Part shown: piece after piece, positions 50,813 through 57,446 of the stretch
Layout: every line of letters starts with the position of its first letter
Numbering within the stretch: position 1 is the stretch's first letter
NCBI GenBank assembly: GCA_020444245.1
Contig: JAHLLI010000006.1
Coordinates: 62,001-126,000 of the forward strand
Reading direction: 5' to 3'
DNA length: 64,000 nt
Source: Actinomycetales bacterium
GTDB taxonomy: Bacteria > Actinomycetota > Actinomycetes > Actinomycetales > Cellulomonadaceae
Position numbers and translations under genes: made by a program
Notes under the pieces: generated by a model
What the model saw: only the letters and a program-made list of their open reading frames with translations
Told to the model about the DNA's origin: nothing
The model's database searches: none

Positions 50813-50838
50813 GCTCCCCCGACTGGACTCGAACCAGT
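50813..50838. repeat. attL: left direct repeat (tRNA-Asn 3' end)
   Basis: A 26-base sequence identical to 57373-57398, the 3' end of the tRNA-Asn gene including the T-arm and acceptor strand. The rest of the tRNA is missing here, so this is the leftover copy made by site-specific integration. Confidence 0.92.
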
Positions 50839-50867
50839 CGCACCGCCGATCGGCCGTGACTGGACAC

Positions 50868-50897
50868 CACCTGCGAAAACGGCCGCTCACCTGCGAA
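50868..50897 (+). repeat. Two direct repeats CACCTGCGAA near attL
   Basis: Copies at 50868-50877 and 50888-50897, 20 bases apart, lying between the core site and integrase. A reasonable guess is excisionase or repressor binding. An inverted repeat CCGACA/TGTCGG follows at 50903-50922. Confidence 0.5.
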
Positions 50898-50957
50898 CAC
50901 GTCCGACAGTAACGGGTGTCGGTCGTGGACACAAGAGGACACGCGTGCCATCCTGGG

Positions 50958-50975
50958 TCGCACGTGGATCGCACG
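50958..50975 (+). promoter_or_regulatory. Left arm-type site: TCGCACG-N4-TCGCACG
   Basis: Two direct copies (50958-50964 and 50969-50975) just before the integrase start; the same arrangement is repeated at 57294-57311 near the other end. Likely P-arm binding sites of the integrase, or operators. Confidence 0.55.
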
Positions 50976-50988
50976 CGGGGAGGCTCAG

Positions 50989-52119
50989 GTGGCACAGCGC
51001 AAGGCCGAGAGGCGCGGCTTCGGGTACATCCGACGCCTGCCGTCCAAGCGCTACCAGGCGTCCTACATCGGCCCGGACACCGCCCGGCACTCCGCCCCGC
51101 ACACCTTCGAGGCCAAGGGCGACGCCGAGGCGTGGCTAGCCGAGGAGCGCCGGGCGTGCGAGAGCCCGCAGTGGGTGGCGCCCAAGGACCGCGCCGCGCT
51201 CGCCGAGGCCCGGCGGCCCGTGACGGTGGGGGAGTACGCCGAGTCGTGGATCGTCCGGCGCGACCTGCGTCCGCGCACCCGGGCGCACTACCGCTCCATG
51301 CTCGACCGGTTCATCCTGCCGAGGTTCGCTGACCGGCCGCTGGCGGCCGTGACGCCTCGGGAGGTCGCCGAGTGGCACCACGCGCTCGCACAGCAGACCG
51401 GCCCCACCTACCGGGCCCACGCCTACAGCCTCCTGCGCACCCTGTACCGGGCCGCGATCGCCGAGGACGAGGCAGCGACCTCCCCGTGCCGTGTGCCCGG
51501 CGCCGGCCAGTCCAAGCGCGTGCGCAAGATCGAGCCCGCGACGCTCGCCGAGCTCGAGGCGCTGACCAAGGCCATGCCCGAACGCCTGCGCGCCATGGTG
51601 CTGCTCATGGCGTGGTGTGCGCTGCGCTTCGGCGAGGCGACCGAGCTGCGCCGCAAGGACGTCGACCTGACCAACGGCGTGCTCCACGTGCGCCGCGGTG
51701 TCGTGCGGGTCGACGGCGAGCGGATCGTGGGGGAGACCAAGACCGAGGCCGGTCGGCGCGACGTCGCGGTGCCGCCGCACCTGATCCCGGTCCTGCGCGA
51801 CCACCTCGCCACACACGCCGCGTGGGGCCGCGATGGGCTCCTGTTCCCCGCCCGCGACGGCGGCAACCTGCCGCACTCCACGTTCCTGGACCACTTCCAC
51901 GACGCCGCGAGCGCCGCAGGGCGCCCGGACCTCACCCCGCACATGCTCAGGCACACCGGGGCCGTTCTGGCGGCTCAGACGGGCGCCACGCTGGCCGAAC
52001 TCATGGCCCGGCTCGGCCACACCACGCCCGCGGCCGCGATGCGCTACCAGCACGCCGCCCAGGGCCGTGACGCGCAGATCGCCGCGGCGCTGTCCGCGAT
52101 GGTGGAGGGGGCGAAGTGA
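50989..52119 (+). CDS. int: Tyrosine site-specific integrase
   Basis: 376 residues. N-terminal arm-binding domain (about 1-55), core-binding SAM-like domain (70-160: TVGEYAESWIVRRDLRPRTR) and catalytic domain with Arg213 (CALRFGE), Lys near 247, His318/Arg321 (HMLRHTG), His344 (GHTTP) and nucleophile Tyr353. All catalytic residues are present. It recombines the tRNA-Asn core with the circular element. GGGGAGG precedes the GTG. Overlaps the next gene by four bases. Confidence 0.93.
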   Translation: MAQRKAERRGFGYIRRLPSKRYQASYIGPDTARHSAPHTFEAKGDAEAWLAEERRACESPQWVAPKDRAALAEARRPVTVGEYAESWIVRRDLRPRTRAHYRSMLDRFILPRFADRPLAAVTPREVAEWHHALAQQTGPTYRAHAYSLLRTLYRAAIAEDEAATSPCRVPGAGQSKRVRKIEPATLAELEALTKAMPERLRAMVLLMAWCALRFGEATELRRKDVDLTNGVLHVRRGVVRVDGERIVGETKTEAGRRDVAVPPHLIPVLRDHLATHAAWGRDGLLFPARDGGNLPHSTFLDHFHDAASAAGRPDLTPHMLRHTGAVLAAQTGATLAELMARLGHTTPAAAMRYQHAAQGRDAQIAAALSAMVEGAK

Positions 52120-52490
52120 GAAGTCTCGCGATCGTCTGCACCGACCGCGGGCAGCACAAGAAGGTCCGTATGACGACGGTCGTGTGGCGCAGCTACGAAG
52201 CGGGCGCGCCGGACAAGCCCGTGATGCTCGGGCTGCTCATGGGCACCGCGAGCGGCAGCATCCGGCGAGGAAACTTCGTGCCCCCGTGGGTCGACGGCAA
52301 CCCGCTAAGGCCCGCAGGATCACCCGCCGATGGCAGTCCGCCGCCACCCGGCTGGAGCCGCAGCTCGTATGACTTCTGGTGCCCCAAGTGCGGGCGAACG
52401 ACGAGGATCAGGGCGGAGCGATGGTGGCAGATTGTCGACGGCGCTCGGCGTGTTGGGATGACTGAGTTCGATCTGTCCGCCCTAGACTAG
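52116..52490 (+). CDS. Hypothetical protein with C-terminal zinc-ribbon-like motif
   Basis: 124 residues starting with GTGA overlap on int. N-terminal region MRSLAIVCTDRGQHKKVRMT; a C-terminal half-ribbon FWCPKCGRTTRIRAERWW, which would need a second Cys pair (a single Cys is near residue 8, so zinc binding is uncertain). Small proteins of this kind occur beside int in actinophages. Function unknown. Confidence 0.6.
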   Translation: MRSLAIVCTDRGQHKKVRMTTVVWRSYEAGAPDKPVMLGLLMGTASGSIRRGNFVPPWVDGNPLRPAGSPADGSPPPPGWSRSSYDFWCPKCGRTTRIRAERWWQIVDGARRVGMTEFDLSALD

Positions 52491-52530
52491 TAACGACCTT
52501 CGAGGTCCCCTGTAGGCCGCTTGTGGCCGG

Positions 52531-52556
52531 GGCGCTGGCGGGGAGAATCCAGCGCC
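52531..52556 (+). terminator. Hairpin before the excisionase gene
   Basis: GGCGCTGG (52531-52538) pairs with CCAGCGCC (52549-52556), loop of ten bases, in the 120-base gap between 52490 and 52610. The gap must also carry the promoter for the replication cassette. Confidence 0.4.
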
Positions 52557-52609
52557 TGTAAGCCCGCTGACCCGGTGGGGTGGTTTCGCACACCCCAGGA
52601 GCGGGCAAC

Positions 52610-52792
52610 ATGCCTTCCTACGTCAGCATCGAGCAGGGCGCCGAGCGCCTTGGCGTCTCCACGCGGACGATCCGGCGCATGATCGCAGCCGGAGAGCTCC
52701 GGGCCTATCGGCTCGGAGGGCGCCTCATCAGGATCGACGAGCAGTCACTGCGCGCCGTTCTCCGCCCCATCCCCGCGGCGGTGAGCCGCTGA
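52610..52792 (+). CDS. xis: Excisionase / MerR-type helix-turn-helix protein
   Basis: 60 residues, SYVSIEQGAERLGVSTRTIR followed by RMIAAGELRAYRLGGRLIRI is the winged-helix excisionase family fold. It should bend DNA at attL/attR and direct excision by the integrase, and often also regulates transcription. ATG at 52610 with AGGAG in front. TGATG overlap leads to the next small gene. Confidence 0.88.
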   Translation: MPSYVSIEQGAERLGVSTRTIRRMIAAGELRAYRLGGRLIRIDEQSLRAVLRPIPAAVSR

Positions 52793-52920
52793 TGGGCGCG
52801 GTCCCCCGCGGCCTGTCTGTCACGACGTCCGGCTTCACCCTGGCCGTCTACAACCTTGGCAGCAGCGCGGCCACGTGGACCGGGCTTTACGTGACCTGGA
52901 AGGCCGAGGTCGACGTCTGA
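52792..52920 (+). CDS. Small coupled 42-residue ORF
   Basis: Reads MGAVPRGLSVTTSGFTLAVY and ends GLYVTWKAEVDV. It starts in the xis stop (TGATG) and ends in the next start (TGATG), so its boundaries fit perfectly between two genes. The C-terminal Thr/Gly/Tyr/Trp-rich segment looks like a beta-strand tip, and no family can be named. It is too short for usual gene finders. Confidence 0.6.
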   Translation: MGAVPRGLSVTTSGFTLAVYNLGSSAATWTGLYVTWKAEVDV

Positions 52921-53249
52921 TGGCCGCGAGAGACGCCGCCGCCCACGGCAGGGGGTCCGTGGGCGGGGCACAGGCTGGCGGGCCTACGTCCAGGGTAGCG
53001 ACGTCCGACCCGTGGTGGCACTCCGTCGCGCACCGCGCCCTCGAGTGGCTCGCGCAGTCCGGCCAGCCGTTCGACGCCTACGACCTGACCGAGCTCGGCG
53101 TGCCCGATCCTGACCACCCGGCACGCTGGGGCGCCCTGTTCGCCGCGGCGCAAGCCCAGGGGCTCATCGCGCCCGTGGGCTACCAGCCCTCACGTCGGCC
53201 GACCCGTGCCGGCGGGGTCTGCCGCGTGTGGGTCGGAGCGGTCCCGTGA
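52920..53249 (+). CDS. Actinophage-type small protein upstream of Rep
   Basis: 109 residues. WWHSVAHRALEWLAQSGQPFDAYDLTELGVPDPDHPARWGALFAAAQAQGLI: a compact helical domain often seen next to replication genes of actinophages; function unknown (possibly DNA binding or helicase loading). ATG at 52920 overlaps the small ORF stop; its TGA overlaps the rep GTG. Confidence 0.65.
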   Translation: MAARDAAAHGRGSVGGAQAGGPTSRVATSDPWWHSVAHRALEWLAQSGQPFDAYDLTELGVPDPDHPARWGALFAAAQAQGLIAPVGYQPSRRPTRAGGVCRVWVGAVP

Positions 53250-54013
53250 CGGGGGCCGGCAACGCGACGCAGACACTGGACGTCGACGGTCGGCGGCCGG
53301 CTGTGGCGCGCGTTGCCTCGCTGCCTCGGGAGTACCGGCTCACTGACGCCGAGTGGCGGGTGCTCATGGTCCTGGCGTGCGACAGCTACGACGGCGAGAC
53401 AGCGGCGCCCGGGATGGACAACCTGGTCGCCTGGACCGGCAAGGCGCGGTCGTCGGTGGCGGCAGCCATGGCGCATCTGACCGTGTCGACCGAACACCGG
53501 CCGGCGCTGTTGGAGAGGGCAATCGCCAGCCAGGGCCGCAACCGCACCGAGTGGCGCCTGATCCTGCCTGAACCGTCCGCCTCAGACCGGACGGTTGCGA
53601 TCCCGCTCAACCGTCCGGCAACCGTCCGGCAACCGTCCGCCTCAGACCGGACGGTTAACCGTCCGGCAACCGTCCGGTCTGGACCGGACACTCCCTCTTC
53701 CCCTGAAGATCCCTTCCCCCCTGCGGCGCGACCCGCGCCGGGCGGGGGCGCCCAACACGATCCACACCAGCACGAACCGAACGCCCGTGCCGCACTCGAA
53801 CGACTCGCAGCCGAGCGCGCGTTGCCAGTCAGCGTCGACGAGCTGCTCGAAGCGGCGTACCGACTCGGCAGCGGCGATCCGTGGGAGGGATACCGGGATC
53901 ACGTCAAGCCTGCGACGGAAGGCAGCCTCGACGGCACCCGAGACCCAGGCGCGGTGCTACGGGCTCGCCTGGGCATTCGGCGCGCGCAGAACTTCGTCAG
54001 GTCCGCGTCATGA
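53246..54013 (+). CDS. Replication initiator-like winged-helix protein
   Basis: 255 residues. N-terminal winged-helix (about 25-100: LPREYRLTDAEWRVLMVLAC, GMDNLVAWTGKARSSVAAAMAHLTVS, EWRLILP) resembles phage replisome-organiser/lambda O type domains. Residues 109-144 are encoded by the iteron cluster and are low-complexity (repeats of NRPATVR). The C-terminal part has a helical segment near 185-225 and KP.. basic tail. The iterons inside its own gene are like the lambda origin inside the O gene. GTGA and ATGA overlaps on both sides. Confidence 0.7.
   Translation: MTGAGNATQTLDVDGRRPAVARVASLPREYRLTDAEWRVLMVLACDSYDGETAAPGMDNLVAWTGKARSSVAAAMAHLTVSTEHRPALLERAIASQGRNRTEWRLILPEPSASDRTVAIPLNRPATVRQPSASDRTVNRPATVRSGPDTPSSPEDPFPPAARPAPGGGAQHDPHQHEPNARAALERLAAERALPVSVDELLEAAYRLGSGDPWEGYRDHVKPATEGSLDGTRDPGAVLRARLGIRRAQNFVRSAS
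53571..53676. repeat. Iteron cluster (candidate replication origin)
   Basis: Eight copies of AACCGTCCG within 106 bases: plus strand at 53571, 53609, 53620, 53631, 53657 and 53668; minus strand (CGGACGGTT) at 53588 and 53648. Three consecutive copies are 11 bases apart, the helical repeat. A near-palindrome TCCGGTCTGGACCGGA follows at 53673-53688. Located in the coding linker of the initiator gene. Confidence 0.8.
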
Positions 54014-54300
54014 CCACCGACCGCCACGAGGCCCGTGCCGCGCTCCTGGCCTACCTCGAGCGTCTGTCCGACAACGGCGCCCGCGTCCCGTGCCGTGAGG
54101 TCGACGTCCCCGAGCGGTCCATCTGGACCAGCGACGACCCGGAGGACCAGGAGCTCGCGGCCCGGCTGTGTGTCGGGTGCGCGGGGGTCAAGGCGTGCGA
54201 CGCCTACGGCCTGGCGTGGCCCAAGGAGGCCGGTGTCTACGGCGGCCGGACCGATCTCGAGCGGCGCAAGGCCGCGACCACGCCCAGGGAGGCGGCGTGA
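54010..54300 (+). CDS. WhiB-like iron-sulfur regulator
   Basis: 96 residues with four cysteines Cys28, Cys54, Cys57, Cys63 in the C...CxxCx5C arrangement that binds a 4Fe-4S cluster in Wbl proteins. GVYGG (75-79) replaces the usual GVWGG turn, followed by a basic tail. Actinophages encode WhiB-like proteins that interfere with host WhiB or act as late regulators. Overlaps rep by ATGA. Confidence 0.82.
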   Translation: MTTDRHEARAALLAYLERLSDNGARVPCREVDVPERSIWTSDDPEDQELAARLCVGCAGVKACDAYGLAWPKEAGVYGGRTDLERRKAATTPREAA

Positions 54301-54513
54301 GCACTCGATCATGGTTTTTCGGCGAGCCTCGGCCAAGACTCCGCCCGGCGCTGCCGTTTCTGCCTGTGGCGTTTTCCACCAAACCCCGGGGGTGGCCCGC
54401 CCCCCTACCGGCACACCCCGGCGGCACTTTTTTTCGTCCGGGGGGAGAAAGCGCGACGCCGGCGGAGTCGTCGGCGAGACCCACACAAAGAACCGGGAAG
54501 GGGCTAGATCGTG
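54301..54513 (+). other. Candidate packaging (cos-like) region / poorly coding stretch
   Basis: The 213 bases between the WhiB and the next gene contain runs GGGGG (54388-54392) and CCCCCC (54400-54405) with hairpin potential, T7 (54428-54434) and GGGGGG (54440-54445). A 93-codon frame (GTG 54297 to 54578) crosses it and overlaps the next gene, but its low-complexity Pro/Arg content is unconvincing as protein. In phages this place, before the terminase/capsid block, is where cos lies. Confidence 0.35.
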
Positions 54514-54825
54514 ATGGATCTGTCCGGGGCGCAGAGGGACGCACTGGCCCAGCTATTCGCCGCCACCGTGAGCCTTGACGACGTGACGTTGCGTGCCGCG
54601 TTCGAGACCTACCGCGCTGCCCGAGATCGCGGGGGACACTGGGCGGCGTTCTTCGATGGCATGTGCGGACTGTTCGCCGAAGCGCAGGACGAGGTCTTGC
54701 GGCAGCGACAGGCGTTCGAGGACGCCGCCGCGCTTGTGTCGCCGAACACTCTCGGGCGTGAGGTTGAGGCGTTCCTACAGGAACGCGACACGCGGGACGA
54801 GGACGGCGACGCGCCTACCCCGTAG
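54514..54825 (+). CDS. Hypothetical acidic helical protein upstream of capsid
   Basis: 103 residues starting MDLSGAQRDALAQLFAATVS. Helix-rich and acidic, with a region (GHWAAFFDGMCGLFAEAQDEV) that may be amphipathic. Its position is where terminase small subunit or capsid-size/scaffold factors lie in satellites; no family can be named. AAGGGG precedes the ATG. Confidence 0.55.
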   Translation: MDLSGAQRDALAQLFAATVSLDDVTLRAAFETYRAARDRGGHWAAFFDGMCGLFAEAQDEVLRQRQAFEDAAALVSPNTLGREVEAFLQERDTRDEDGDAPTP

Positions 54826-54859
54826 CCCGTATCCTGATCATGTAGGCGCAAGGGTCGGA

Positions 54860-54920
54860 CAGGGCGAAACCCATCCGTGGCGCCGAGCAGGACCCAGCAC
54901 ATCCGGCAGGGCGAAACCCA
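54860..54920 (+). repeat. Two 14-bp direct repeats upstream of the capsid gene
   Basis: CAGGGCGAAACCCA at 54860-54873 and again at 54907-54920, 47 bases apart, in the 144-base gap before the capsid gene. No gene is seen there. Could be sites for an activator of capsid expression or for packaging. Confidence 0.55.
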
Positions 54921-54969
54921 CCGGGACGTAGGCGAGCACCACACCTAGTCCCGCGAAAGGGGCCCCCGA

Positions 54970-56100
54970 ATGTCGCTCATCGAAACCCTCCGAACGCAGC
55001 GCGAGACGTTGCTGACCGAGGCCGGCGAGATCGCCAAGCGTGGCGTTGACTCCGGCCAGCCGCTGTCCCAGGAGGACGGCACCCGCTTCGACGCGCTCAC
55101 GGCCGAGGTCGAAGCCATCGACACCCGCATGGCCGAGATCGTGGCCGGCGAGGCGCGTGTGCAGGCCATCGAAGCGGACTTCCACGCCAGGCGCGGCATC
55201 ACCCCGGACGGCCGTTCGGCCTCCCCGCTGGCGGTCCGTGCGGACGTGCTGGACGCCGTCCAGGCCGCGATCGCGGGCCGGTCCGCGGGCCGGTGGGTCG
55301 CCGGCCTCGAGCCTGCCGCCGAACAGCGCGCCGCGCTGACGCCCAGCAACACGGGCGGGCGGCACAGCTGGTCCGCGGCGACCCTGCGCAGTCCGCGCCT
55401 GCTCCACCAGGTCGCGGGCGTGCCGATCGAGACGAACGTCGCAGCAATCACGGCGGAGTACCTGCGTGCCGGCGCCCCCGCCAGCGCCGCCAGCGTCGCC
55501 CCCGCCACCGCGGTCTCCGAGCTCACCAGCGTCACCGGGACGTCCGTCACGCTGGCACGGTACGGCCGGTACACCAGCCTGACCCGTGAGCACCTGATCG
55601 CCGCGGACTCGGCCGGCACCATCACGTCGCTGCACCGGCGCTCGATCGCGCTGGACCTCGACACGGTGCTGATCACCCTCATCTCGGCGGCCGCGCCGAC
55701 CGGCACGGGCGTGGTGACCGGTAGCGCGGCGGACGTGGCGCTGCGGATCGGCCTGGCCACCGTGGCCGACGCGACCGGCGCCGAGGTCCCGGACCTGACG
55801 ATCGTGGCGAACCCTGCCGACGCAGGGCTGATCGAGAACGTCGACCCGGTCGGCGGCGCGACGCTCGGTGAGGTTGTCGCGACGTTCGGCGGGGCCAAGG
55901 TCTACTACAGCTCGATCGCCACCAGCGGGACGGCCCTCGTGTTCGACGGCGCCTCTGCCAAGTACCTCGAGGCTCAGGCGCTGACGTTCGACTCTGACGT
56001 CGCGGTGACGACGGGCGTCGTGACGCTGGCCACGAGCGTCATCGGCGGGTACGGGACCGACCTCATCGCCGGCGGCGTCCGGGCCGTCACCCTGGCGTGA
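54970..56100 (+). CDS. HK97-fold phage major capsid protein
   Basis: 376 residues. A helical N-terminal region (1-about 75: LIETLRTQRETLLTEAGEIA and more, coiled-coil like the HK97 delta domain) precedes the capsid fold, which has the pattern seen in major capsid proteins: VARYGRYTSLTREHLIAADS, ALDLDTVLIT, DLTIVANPADAG and GGAKVYYSSI. Length fits actinobacterial HK97-type subunits. No separate protease gene is nearby, so the N-terminal delta-like region may be left uncleaved or cut by a helper protease. GAAAGGGG precedes the ATG. Confidence 0.85.
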   Translation: MSLIETLRTQRETLLTEAGEIAKRGVDSGQPLSQEDGTRFDALTAEVEAIDTRMAEIVAGEARVQAIEADFHARRGITPDGRSASPLAVRADVLDAVQAAIAGRSAGRWVAGLEPAAEQRAALTPSNTGGRHSWSAATLRSPRLLHQVAGVPIETNVAAITAEYLRAGAPASAASVAPATAVSELTSVTGTSVTLARYGRYTSLTREHLIAADSAGTITSLHRRSIALDLDTVLITLISAAAPTGTGVVTGSAADVALRIGLATVADATGAEVPDLTIVANPADAGLIENVDPVGGATLGEVVATFGGAKVYYSSIATSGTALVFDGASAKYLEAQALTFDSDVAVTTGVVTLATSVIGGYGTDLIAGGVRAVTLA

Positions 56101-56279
56101 TGTTCACCCTCAAGCCGAGAGCCCCGGACGAACCGGAGCCGAGCCCCGTCGCCCGGCTCTGGCCCGAGGTCAACCGGCCCGAGGGCATGTCAGCCGCCAA
56201 GGCGCTCGAAGAGATGTTCGAGGCCGATGCGTACTACGTCCGGCCGTGGTGGCTGGAGACGCCGCATCGCATCGAGTAG
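56100..56279 (+). CDS. Small 59-residue protein after the capsid gene
   Basis: MFTLKPRAPDEPEPSPVARL and then WPEVNRPEGMSAAKALEEMFEADAYY. Starts in the capsid stop codon (TGATG), so it is co-translated. Unknown; may be a capsid accessory or decoration protein. Confidence 0.6.
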   Translation: MFTLKPRAPDEPEPSPVARLWPEVNRPEGMSAAKALEEMFEADAYYVRPWWLETPHRIE

Positions 56280-56381
56280 GGACGTCAACGTCACCCCGGC
56301 GGCTCGCAGAGACAGGCTGACGGGGAGCGATGGCGGGAGAGGGTACTTTCCGGCCCGTAGACCCCGCCAGCGTCCAGAGAG

Positions 56382-56424
56382 GGGCCCGGCCCCCTGCGTT
56401 CTCAGTCCGCAGGGGGCCGGGCCC
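56382..56424. terminator. Strong bidirectional hairpin ending the capsid operon
   Basis: Perfect 17-bp stem (56382-56398 with 56408-56424), loop of nine. It lies between the plus-strand capsid operon and the minus-strand cargo genes, so it probably stops both. Confidence 0.8.
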
Positions 56425-56878
56425 GCAAGCTTCCGCCATCCCGAACCCAGCGTCTTCCCGCGGCATCGCGGAAGGCCACTGCGAGCGGCCGGTACTGCTC
56501 GTCAGGAGAGACGACCGGGATCGGCGTCACCACACGGATCGACTCGCCGGCAGGAATCACCCGCTGCGCCAGGCTCCACGTTGGGGCCTCCGGCAGACCT
56601 CCTGTCGAGACGACATCGAAGATCGGCTGGCTCGAGTTGTTCTGCACCACAGCCATCAGGTTCTCCGGGCCGGCCGCTCGCTCGAGCCAGGCGGACACCA
56701 TCGAGGCCTGTGAAGCCCGCGCCTCGCGTCGACTGACGACGTACACCGTCGCGGCAACGCCTGCGGCCCCAGCGGTCGCCACCGCCGCGAGCAGCGTTCC
56801 GATCGCGACCAGCGCGTCCCAACCGAATGCCCACGGACCAGCCACGGATCCCGAGCATACGGCGCCGCCCCAACCCAT
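56402..56878 (-). CDS. Single-pass membrane protein (cargo gene 1)
   Basis: About 158 residues from the ATG (complement 56876-56878) or about 147 from a GTG at 56845. One membrane helix near residues 22-45 (ALVAIGTLLAAVATAGAAGV), then a YVVSRREARASQ linker and a C-terminal soluble domain with NLMAVVQNNSSQPIFDVV and IPAGESIRVVTPIP. The fold of the soluble part looks beta-rich. Unknown function; membrane position at an element end is typical of defence or superinfection-exclusion cargo, but there is no proof. Confidence 0.6.
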   Translation of the reverse strand: MGWGGAVCSGSVAGPWAFGWDALVAIGTLLAAVATAGAAGVAATVYVVSRREARASQASMVSAWLERAAGPENLMAVVQNNSSQPIFDVVSTGGLPEAPTWSLAQRVIPAGESIRVVTPIPVVSPDEQYRPLAVAFRDAAGRRWVRDGGSLRARPPAD

Positions 56879-56906
56879 CCGGCCCGGGGCGGCGCTTCGT
56901 CGTGCG

Positions 56907-57257
56907 TCAGGCGGAGGCGGCCTCAGCGGCGGCGCGCACCAGCTCCGCCGCGAGCTCGAGGCACTGGTTCGGCGTCATCGGCACCACCACGCTCGAGTGC
57001 TGCCAGGCGACGAAGAGCCGCAGGTTCGGCGCCGGGAACACGGCGACGCTGCGCATGTTCACCTGGCGCTGCCGGCCGCGGTCGTCCTCGAAGTTGGCCT
57101 CGGCATAGGGCTCCATCAGCGGGAACAGCACGCCGGGCCGCACGCTGCCCGAGGGCGGAGTATCGGCGATCGATCGGACGCCCTCCTGCAAGAGCCGGAC
57201 GCGCAGGTCGTCCAGGTAGGCGAAGGTGCGGGGTGCGGTGCTGGTCATGGTGGTCAT
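56907..57257 (-). CDS. Hypothetical cargo protein 2 (116 residues)
   Basis: Starts MTTMTSTAPRTFAYLDDLRV with a perfect GGAGGGA before the ATG. A tail with VNMRSVAVFPAPNLRLFVAWQHSSVVVPMTPNQCLELAAELVRAA. The frame continues upstream through the tRNA, but the ribosome binding site settles the start. No known domain; may bind nucleic acid or be a small regulator. Confidence 0.65.
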   Translation of the reverse strand: MTTMTSTAPRTFAYLDDLRVRLLQEGVRSIADTPPSGSVRPGVLFPLMEPYAEANFEDDRGRQRQVNMRSVAVFPAPNLRLFVAWQHSSVVVPMTPNQCLELAAELVRAAAEAASA

Positions 57258-57293
57258 GTCTGATCCCTCCGGGGAGACGGACCCCCGCCCGGA

Positions 57294-57311
57294 TCGCACG
57301 TATGTCGCACG
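57294..57311 (+). promoter_or_regulatory. Right arm-type site: TCGCACG-N4-TCGCACG
   Basis: Direct copies at 57294-57300 and 57305-57311, 62-79 bases inside the right core site. Same sequence, spacing and orientation as near attL (50958), so in the circle the core is flanked by two such pairs. Confidence 0.55.
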
Positions 57312-57324
57312 CCCTGACATGACG

Positions 57325-57363
57325 AAGGCCCCTCGCACTGCGTATCCGCAGGTGAGGGGCCTT
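57325..57363. terminator. Terminator downstream of tRNA-Asn
   Basis: AAGGCCCCTC (57325-57334) pairs with GAGGGGCCTT (57354-57363), inner CTGCG/CGCAG. On the minus strand it follows the 3' end of the tRNA gene. A different hairpin occupies the same position relative to the attL copy. Confidence 0.75.
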
Positions 57364-57372
57364 TCGCGTTGT

Positions 57373-57398
57373 GCTCCCCCGACTGGACTCGAACCAGT
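57373..57398. repeat. attR: right direct repeat inside tRNA-Asn
   Basis: Identical 26 bases to 50813-50838. Here they are part of the intact tRNA gene, so integration has kept the tRNA functional. Confidence 0.92.
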
Positions 57399-57446
57399 AA
57401 CCCTCTGATTAACAGTCAGATGCTCTGCCAATTGAGCTACAGGGGA
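57374..57446 (-). tRNA. tRNA-Asn (anticodon GTT)
   Basis: The minus strand begins TCCCCTGTAGCTCAATTGGC, with a 7-bp acceptor stem closing on CGGGGGA. D-arm GCTC/GAGC, anticodon loop CTGTTAA flanked by TCTGA/TCAGA, and T-arm ACTGG-TTCGAGT-CCAGT are complete. 73 bases with discriminator G; CCA is not encoded. Serves as the integration target of the element. Confidence 0.97.

What the first reader, a model, noticed from the sequence alone, without database searches (positions are those of the whole stretch)
50813..57398. Minimal capsid-carrying phage satellite in tRNA-Asn
A 6.6-kb element with integrase, excisionase, replication initiator and a full HK97-type capsid gene, but no visible portal, terminase large subunit, protease or tail gene. 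The direct repeat, the intact tRNA at the right end and coupled genes argue it is not a random prophage wreck. It resembles phiRv1/phiRv2 of M. tuberculosis and cf-PICIs but lacks even the prohead protease, making it smaller than any I recall.
Basis: partly seen in the sequence, partly recalled or inferred. Interest (0 to 1): 0.85.

Follow-up and report, generated by a model that had tools for sequence, protein, structure and literature searches.

The report
Small capsid-carrying phage satellite
A 6.6-kb mobile DNA element in an actinobacterium carries its own integrase, a likely replication initiator and a single phage shell gene, and looks like a parasite of phages that borrows the rest of the virus particle from a helper phage; similar gene sets turn up repeatedly in related bacteria.

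Summary
The element runs from an exact 26-bp att copy (50813-50838) to an intact tRNA-Asn (57373-57446, - strand). It has integrase, excisionase, an initiator-like gene with an 11-bp repeat array inside it, a WhiB-like regulator and a divergent HK97-type capsid homologue. No portal, terminase, protease or tail gene was detected. Four of five informative relatives have host-type genes right after tRNA-Asn; another carries an 8.8-kb element with a related integrase and a small-terminase gene there.

Best read as a phage satellite, not a wreck. Of 53 capsid-bearing regions classified, 18 (this one included) have capsid plus nearby integrase but no detected terminase, portal or protease; 28 are phage-like. 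The two groups' capsids cluster apart on a tree (6 label changes; shuffled mean 15.5; 0 of 500 as low).

The capsid keeps the N-terminal scaffold domain of an actinophage capsid family; its shell part is far more diverged. The closest worked mechanism is SaPIbov5 Ccm, a satellite capsid homologue built into helper capsids to make them small. Lone capsid genes in satellites are already published. At 6.6 kb it is the smallest of six repeat-bounded capsid elements measured here. Helper, induction and particles are untested.

The parts
50813..50838 (.). attL, exact 26-bp copy of the tRNA-Asn 3' end
50868..50905 (.). 20-bp unit repeated 1.9 times between attL and the integrase; possibly integrase arm sites (inference)
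50989..52119 (+). tyrosine integrase, 376 aa; nearest relative in the genus set 69% identical, in an element at tRNA-Asn of G010
52116..52490 (+). 124-aa ORF overlapping the integrase by 4 bases, no family
52610..52792 (+). excisionase-like HTH protein
   Evidence: scanned from 52580
52920..53249 (+). 109-aa protein, similar to PHROGs of unknown function (21939, 27658)
   Evidence: scanned from 52875
53228..54013 (+). initiator-like protein, 261 aa; relatives in L042 (44%), L041 (34%), L082, L083 and phage contigs L079 and L080
53608..53677 (.). array of an 11-bp unit (CAACCGTCCGG) inside the initiator gene, proposed replication origin (inference)
54010..54300 (+). WhiB-like regulator
   Evidence: scanned from 53881
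54511..54825 (+). 104-aa protein, no family
54970..56100 (+). HK97-type major capsid protein homologue, 376 aa: N-terminal scaffold (delta) domain about residues 2-78, junction motif at 118, diverged shell part
56097..56279 (+). 60-aa ORF overlapping the capsid gene by 4 bases, no family
56402..56878 (-). 158-aa ORF, no Pfam family; partial match to PHROG 22307 of unknown function (E 3.5e-6)
56907..57257 (-). 116-aa ORF, no Pfam or PHROG family
57373..57446 (-). intact tRNA-Asn (gtt); its 3' 26 bp (57373-57398) are attR

Best explanation
It is a phage satellite of the PICI-like kind. Shown by sequence: it sits in tRNA-Asn between att repeats and carries integrase and excisionase, an initiator-like gene with an iteron-like array inside it, and a capsid homologue, without detected genes for portal, protease, packaging or tail. 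Inferred: when a tailed helper phage grows in the cell, the element excises and replicates from the origin in its initiator gene. Its capsid protein enters head assembly through its helper-type N-terminal scaffold domain, is cut at the junction by the helper's protease, and is built with helper capsid protein, portal and terminase into a smaller shell that holds the satellite and excludes the helper genome. This is how SaPIbov5 Ccm is reported to work (PMC5052747, PMC8569155), the protease that cuts Ccm being unsettled there. The likely helper has a capsid of the L140/L120 family.
For: att and coupled genes; sites without it in relatives; a related integrase at the same tRNA with an 8.8-kb element bearing a small terminase. 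Initiator relatives in the same element as a capsid gene and no detected packaging genes in L042 and L082. Iteron-like repeats inside related initiator genes, strong in L041, L042 and L079. Eighteen of 53 capsid regions, this one included, have integrase and capsid but no detected terminase, portal or protease. Capsids of the 20 satellite-like regions cluster away from the 28 phage-like ones, across bacterial families: 6 label changes, shuffled mean 15.5, 0 of 500 as low. pN is below pS in the four capsid pairs tested. Identity of the window capsid to 12 actinophage capsids is 30-38% in the scaffold domain but 19-24% in the shell, whereas among those phages, compared with L140, the shell is the more conserved part in 9 of 11. 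It has EQRA at residue 118; 11 of the 12 phage rows have E-x-R at 119-129, and 2% of shuffled linkers have the motif in the place tested. In phage-like regions with a long capsid protein a protease was found in 13 of 14, in satellite-like regions in 2 of 12 (the window was put in the long class by hand, L138 by an over-extended start).
Against: No helper, induction, excised circle or particle is known. The capsid fold is not shown, and the shell part finds no significant match in its presumed parent family on its own. The Ccm scaffold domain is 44 residues shorter than its helper's in the models of PMC5052747; here the junction motif lies at 118 against 119-129, so that mark is not met. Ten of the 12 phage rows have a second E-x-R at 108-115, so the motif is not unique. 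The initiator is not tied to capsids: relatives in L041 and L083 have no capsid hit nearby and L079 and L080 are phage-like contigs. In E. coli PICIs the lone capsid gene is stated not to be required for transfer (PMC10111431) and its deletion did not lift interference (PMC6092414). No close relative of this capsid was found in the collections searched.
Confidence: 0.5

Rival explanations
1. It is a satellite whose capsid protein alone forms the whole small shell; the helper gives portal, protease, terminase and tail.
For: Some satellite-like elements carry a scaffold-like gene next to the capsid gene: L042 (PHROG head scaffolding protein, E 3e-7); L125, L138 and L124 by position and appearance, with only a weak unknown-function PHROG match for L125 and L138. 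The window capsid has its own scaffold domain and a shell unlike the phage family's.
Against: Its scaffold domain stays close to a phage family while the shell does not, which fits working with helper parts better than independence. Ccm cannot form shells alone (passages of PMC5052747, PMC8569155).
Confidence: 0.2
2. It is a satellite, but the capsid gene is dispensable or serves only interference, and transfer uses ordinary helper capsids.
For: Capsid genes occur in 21 of 29 reference Gram-negative PICIs yet are stated not to be required for helper-assisted transfer (passages of PMC10111431); deleting c1499 did not remove interference (passage of PMC6092414).
Against: Satellite-like capsids form groups apart from phage capsids, and pN is below pS in the four pairs tested.
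Confidence: 0.15
3. It is the remnant of a prophage that lost its late genes.
For: The capsid shell is divergent and has a long tree branch (1.82); several ORFs have no family; 47% (984 of 2106) of actinobacterial prophages were classed as remnants in PMC10023795 (passages read).
Against: Exact att repeats and coupled intact genes, a similar gene set in many genomes, and capsid clustering apart from phages.
Confidence: 0.12

Closest known systems
SaPIbov5 and its capsid homologue Ccm (PMC5052747 and PMC8569155, passages read)
   Same: Integrated satellite with one HK97-type capsid homologue with an N-terminal scaffold domain and no known protease of its own; low identity of the shell to phage capsids.
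   Different: Ccm's scaffold domain is shorter than the helper's; here it is about full length compared with the L140 family. SaPIbov5 has a helper-type cos site; no packaging site is known here.
Candidate PICIs of Mycobacterium, including phiRv1 and phiRv2 (PMC10654092, one section and passages read)
   Same: Integrase plus major capsid protein in Actinobacteria, some of them in tRNA genes.
   Different: Other hosts; some carry terminase or scaffold genes; phiRv1/2 carry a prohead protease (recalled).
Gram-negative PICIs with a capsid gene (PMC10111431 and PMC6092414, passages read)
   Same: Small element with integrase, regulator, replication gene and a capsid gene.
   Different: Gammaproteobacterial; the E. 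coli cases have lambda-like capsid genes; primase and origin of another kind.
cf-PICIs (definition as quoted in PMC10690885, passages read)
   Same: Satellite-encoded capsid protein.
   Different: cf-PICIs encode portal, protease, connectors and both terminase subunits; none was detected here.
MulchRoom and MiniFlayer, Streptomyces satellites (PMC10690885, passages read)
   Same: Actinobacterial satellites with capsid genes.
   Different: They carry terminases, portal and scaffold, and no obvious replicase.

Membership tests
PICI-like satellites | integrase and specific attachment site | tested here: met
PICI-like satellites | own excisionase/regulator, replication gene and origin | tested here: inconclusive
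   excisionase met; initiator and iteron-like array are inferred from relatives and repeats
PICI-like satellites | no complete set of packaging, head and tail genes | tested here: met
PICI-like satellites | small terminase or cos/pac site for specific packaging | tested here: inconclusive
   only a weak PHROG 57 match (E 9.5e-4) of the excisionase HTH; cos/pac cannot be read without a helper
PICI-like satellites | induction by, interference with and packaging by a helper phage | not testable with these tools
   needs bench work; no terminase found in the own genome, but that search had no positive control
cf-PICI | full capsid and packaging module (portal, protease, connectors, TerL, TerS) | tested here: not met
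SaPIbov5 Ccm-type capsid switch | HK97-type capsid homologue with N-terminal scaffold domain, no protease in the element | tested here: met
   shell part only weakly supported
SaPIbov5 Ccm-type capsid switch | scaffold domain shorter than the helper's | tested here: not met
   junction motif at 118 against 119-129 in the presumed helper family; the real helper is unknown
SaPIbov5 Ccm-type capsid switch | incorporation into helper capsids | not testable with these tools
   no helper known
phiRv1/phiRv2-type elements | integrase plus capsid, in Actinobacteria | tested here: met
   host taken as an actinobacterium by inference
phiRv1/phiRv2-type elements | prohead protease (recalled feature) | tested here: not met

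The most novel reading that the evidence does not exclude
A widespread class of actinobacterial satellites keeps only the shell gene of the head module. In this one the capsid protein is a chimera: a helper-type scaffold domain and protease junction fused to a foreign shell, so that it enters the helper's assembly line as a decoy and changes shell size without any packaging, portal or protease gene of its own.
Probability: 0.3. Interest if true: 0.7.

Novelty: new variant of a known kind. Interest (0 to 1): 0.5.

Why it matters
Capsid-only satellites have been called in mycobacteria and seen in PICIs, but in the passages read here only the staphylococcal Ccm has a demonstrated role for such a capsid. 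The comparison suggests that satellite-like capsids in actinobacteria form groups of their own, shared between bacterial families and mostly apart from phage capsids, and it names a capsid family in which to look for the helper. That makes it testable whether one shell gene is enough to take over a phage's assembly.

Tried and rejected
Close relatives of the capsid: none in phage records (one chance-level match at E 4), in the 18 other genus genomes, IMG/VR or GTDB contigs. The three weak hits in other genomes among 396 of the order lie in open frames of 758-1201 aa and were dropped as chance (only 4 candidates per genome were scored there).

Structure: two AlphaFold jobs gave pLDDT 44 and 39.5; no fold search was run on them. 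PDB sequence search with the single protein: nothing up to E 1. With the mixed profile A5 it finds HK97-type capsids, but 12 of its 13 rows are phage capsids, so that says little about the window protein.

Exact empty site: the lutC flank has longer matches in five other genomes (G006, G002, G012, G018, G009), none beside tRNA-Asn, so the original junction was not reconstructed.

Helper in the own genome: a terminase profile found nothing, without a positive control. Only the satellite's own capsid answered phrog_10 there.

First profile census used too few portal seeds and missed this capsid; it was replaced. L127 is a weak member (its integrase hits lie in regions that look like host genes). 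Capsid lengths rest on first start codons, which over-extend some (L138, L123).

The initiator is not specific to capsid satellites. Of 150 family genomes 3, and of 396 order genomes 6, have a match, the own genome counted in both. Of the seven places outside the own genome, L041, L042, L082 and L083 were looked at; L085 was fetched but gave no hit to these profiles, and two weak ones (G103, G215) were not followed. L041 and L083 have no capsid hit nearby. In the window CCGTCCGGC occurs 3 times against a codon-shuffled mean of 0.3 and maximum 3, so one or more of 500 shuffles reach it.
Full report
WHAT IS THERE. The window holds an exact 26-bp direct repeat at 50813-50838 and 57373-57398. The right copy is the 3' end of an intact tRNA-Asn on the - strand, 57373-57446. 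Between them lie a tyrosine integrase, an excisionase-like HTH protein, an initiator-like gene, a WhiB-like regulator, a capsid homologue and small ORFs without a named family. Three neighbouring gene pairs overlap by four bases. G+C in 1-kb windows is 69-75% in the element and 72-76% in the flanks, so composition hardly marks it.

SITE AND RELATIVES. In the genus set of 19 genomes, the own one included, the capsid matches only the own genome, while integrases of this kind match in all 19. The nearest one, 69% identical, is in G010, where a partial att copy and tRNA-Asn enclose 8.8 kb. That element has an excisionase-like and a WhiB-like gene, an AAA-domain replication-type protein (PF13481 E 8.1e-27) and a small terminase (PHROG 1496, E 9.7e-20), and no capsid hit. 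Partial second att copies also occur in G014, G009 and, about 100 kb from its tRNA-Asn, in G002. Of six relatives whose region after tRNA-Asn was read, G016, G006, G018 and G017 have host-type genes there, by appearance and not by scan; G009 has an insertion; the G005 contig ends. The lut genes left of the element are not beside tRNA-Asn where they were found in relatives, so the site is seen without the element but the exact old junction is not.

CAPSID. PHROG 10 (major head protein) matches at E 8.3e-5, N-terminal part only; Pfam does not match. The best relative among loci in hand was a capsid in G414, where terminase, portal, protease and capsid lie in order. A scan of IMG/VR with that capsid gave 13 relatives; 12 went into alignment A5 and 10 into profile A6. 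Against A6 the window protein scores 44.5 bits, the best of 500 shuffles 4.8; hhalign gives 97.7%. The signal sits in the N-terminal scaffold domain: identity to the 12 phage rows is 30-38% there and 19-24% in the shell; among the phages, compared with L140, the shell is the more conserved part in 9 of 11 (for example 67% against 35% for L147; the reverse in L142 and L152). The shell part alone does not match A6, but matches a profile of 23 diverse capsids with 16.8 bits, best of 300 shuffles 2.1, and with hhalign probability 54.6, E 1.2e-4. So the protein is a capsid homologue with a conserved scaffold domain and a strongly diverged, possibly foreign, shell. A junction motif E-x-R lies at residue 118, and at 119-129 in 11 of 12 phage rows; 10 of the 12 have a second one at 108-115; 2% of shuffled linkers have it in the place tested. 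That this is a protease site is inference. Structure prediction gave no confident model beyond the N-terminal helices.

INITIATOR. The 53228-54013 protein has relatives in L042 (44%), L041 (34%), L082 and L083, and in phage-like contigs L079 and L080. L042 and L082 carry a capsid gene in the same element; L041 and L083 have no capsid hit nearby. The gene holds an array of an 11-bp unit. The 9-mer CCGTCCGGC on both strands occurs 3, 5, 8, 1, 0 and 4 times in the window, L042, L041, L082, L080 and L079 genes, against codon-shuffled means of 0.3, 0.4, 0.9, 0.2, 0.0 and 0.3 (maxima 3, 3, 4, 2, 1, 3 in 500). I read it as an origin inside an initiator gene, as in lambda O (recalled); it is absent in L080, weak in L082, and in the window the maximum of the shuffles equals the count.

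CENSUS. phrog_10 matches were found in 24 of 121 family genomes (E up to 1e-3, own included) and 28 of 158 class genomes (E up to 1e-6). I fetched 52 regions of 11 to 20 kb: 49 around many, not all, of these places and three brought by the capsid profile, and classified 56 regions, the window, L042, L080 and L082 included. Three had no capsid call. Of the other 53, 28 had capsid, terminase and portal; 18 (window included) had capsid and an integrase or serine recombinase but no terminase, portal or protease; 2 had capsid, integrase and protease; 3 had a capsid only; 2 had a capsid and a portal but no terminase. An integrase within the region need not belong to the capsid; L127 is doubtful. Absence means no profile hit at E 1e-5. 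Exact repeats at tRNA genes enclose L042 (24 bp, 8623 bp, tRNA-Ser), L123 (38 bp, 8200 bp, tRNA-Lys), L125 (39 bp, 9122 bp, tRNA-Lys) and L138 (40 bp, 9007 bp, tRNA-Thr); L082 has 17 exact bp 8075 bp apart, next to the 3' end of an AFG1-type ATPase gene. The window element, 6560 bp, is the smallest of these six. Two other satellite-like regions, L122 and L136, hold genes of replication-initiation PHROGs. On a tree of 53 capsids the satellite label (20 rows, the two with protease included) needs 6 changes against 28 phage rows, shuffled mean 15.5, 0 of 500 as low; at least 4 are forced by well-supported branches, so several origins. Five satellite-like capsids of two bacterial families form one supported group, and eight, with one capsid-only region, of two families another; three satellite-like pairs join further families, two of them beside phage capsids. 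The window capsid stands alone on a long branch. In four capsid pairs pN is below pS (0.27/0.54, 0.30/0.43, 0.25/0.45, 0.42/0.47); one pair includes the partial capsid of L131, which is not classed as satellite-like, two include L127 or L122, the last difference is slight, and third-position G+C bias makes all of these rough.

MECHANISM. Long capsid proteins go with a protease in 13 of 14 phage-like regions but in 2 of 12 satellite-like ones (lengths include some over-extended starts, and the window was put there by hand). In the satellites the protease must then come from elsewhere, or the domain stays on. SaPIbov5 Ccm is the worked case: a satellite capsid homologue with a scaffold domain, found cleaved although SaPIbov5 has no known protease, sits in the pentamers of small helper-built capsids and blocks the helper (PMC5052747, PMC8569155, passages read). 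I think this is the most likely way here (0.5), with a self-made shell (0.2), a dispensable capsid (0.15) and a remnant (0.12) as rivals.

WHAT IS KNOWN. Integrase-plus-capsid elements are called candidate PICIs in Mycobacterium (PMC10654092), capsid genes are in 21 of 29 reference Gram-negative PICIs (PMC10111431), and capsids of cf-PICIs form three clades within phage capsids (PMC11389934, passage read). The listings of searches for satellites with capsid genes, several of them aimed at Actinobacteria, and the passages I read showed no description of this element or of the clustering found here; the library holds only open papers, and most of those listed I did not open. So the kind is known; the capsid with a conserved scaffold domain and a diverged shell, the initiator with internal repeats and the separate capsid groups are what this case adds.

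Noticed in passing
L038:6409-15248 (G010): An 8.8-kb element at the same tRNA-Asn with a related integrase, a WhiB-like gene and a small terminase, but no capsid hit: a second satellite-like type at one site.
   Followed up: partly
L082:12696-13436: A TIR-domain gene (TIR_2 E 2.5e-23) on a capsid-carrying element, possibly an anti-phage defence gene.
   Followed up: partly
L042:10422-11546: A 374-aa protein with a weak match to tail tape-measure proteins (E 7.7e-4) on a capsid-carrying element.
   Followed up: no
L039 (G014), between 265867 and 284902 of C30: A 19-kb stretch between an att-like copy and tRNA-Asn with a 58% identical integrase; no capsid, terminase, portal or protease hit in the part fetched: the integrase family serves different cargoes.
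   Followed up: partly
L201:5379-6422: An IMG/VR contig with an integrase of this family and a prohead protease gene (Peptidase_S78 E 7.9e-33), in the part fetched without a capsid hit.
   Followed up: partly
L041: The initiator relative here lies in a region with an FtsK/SpoIIIE-family gene (E 3.6e-11) and no capsid hit, so the initiator also occurs outside capsid satellites.
   Followed up: partly
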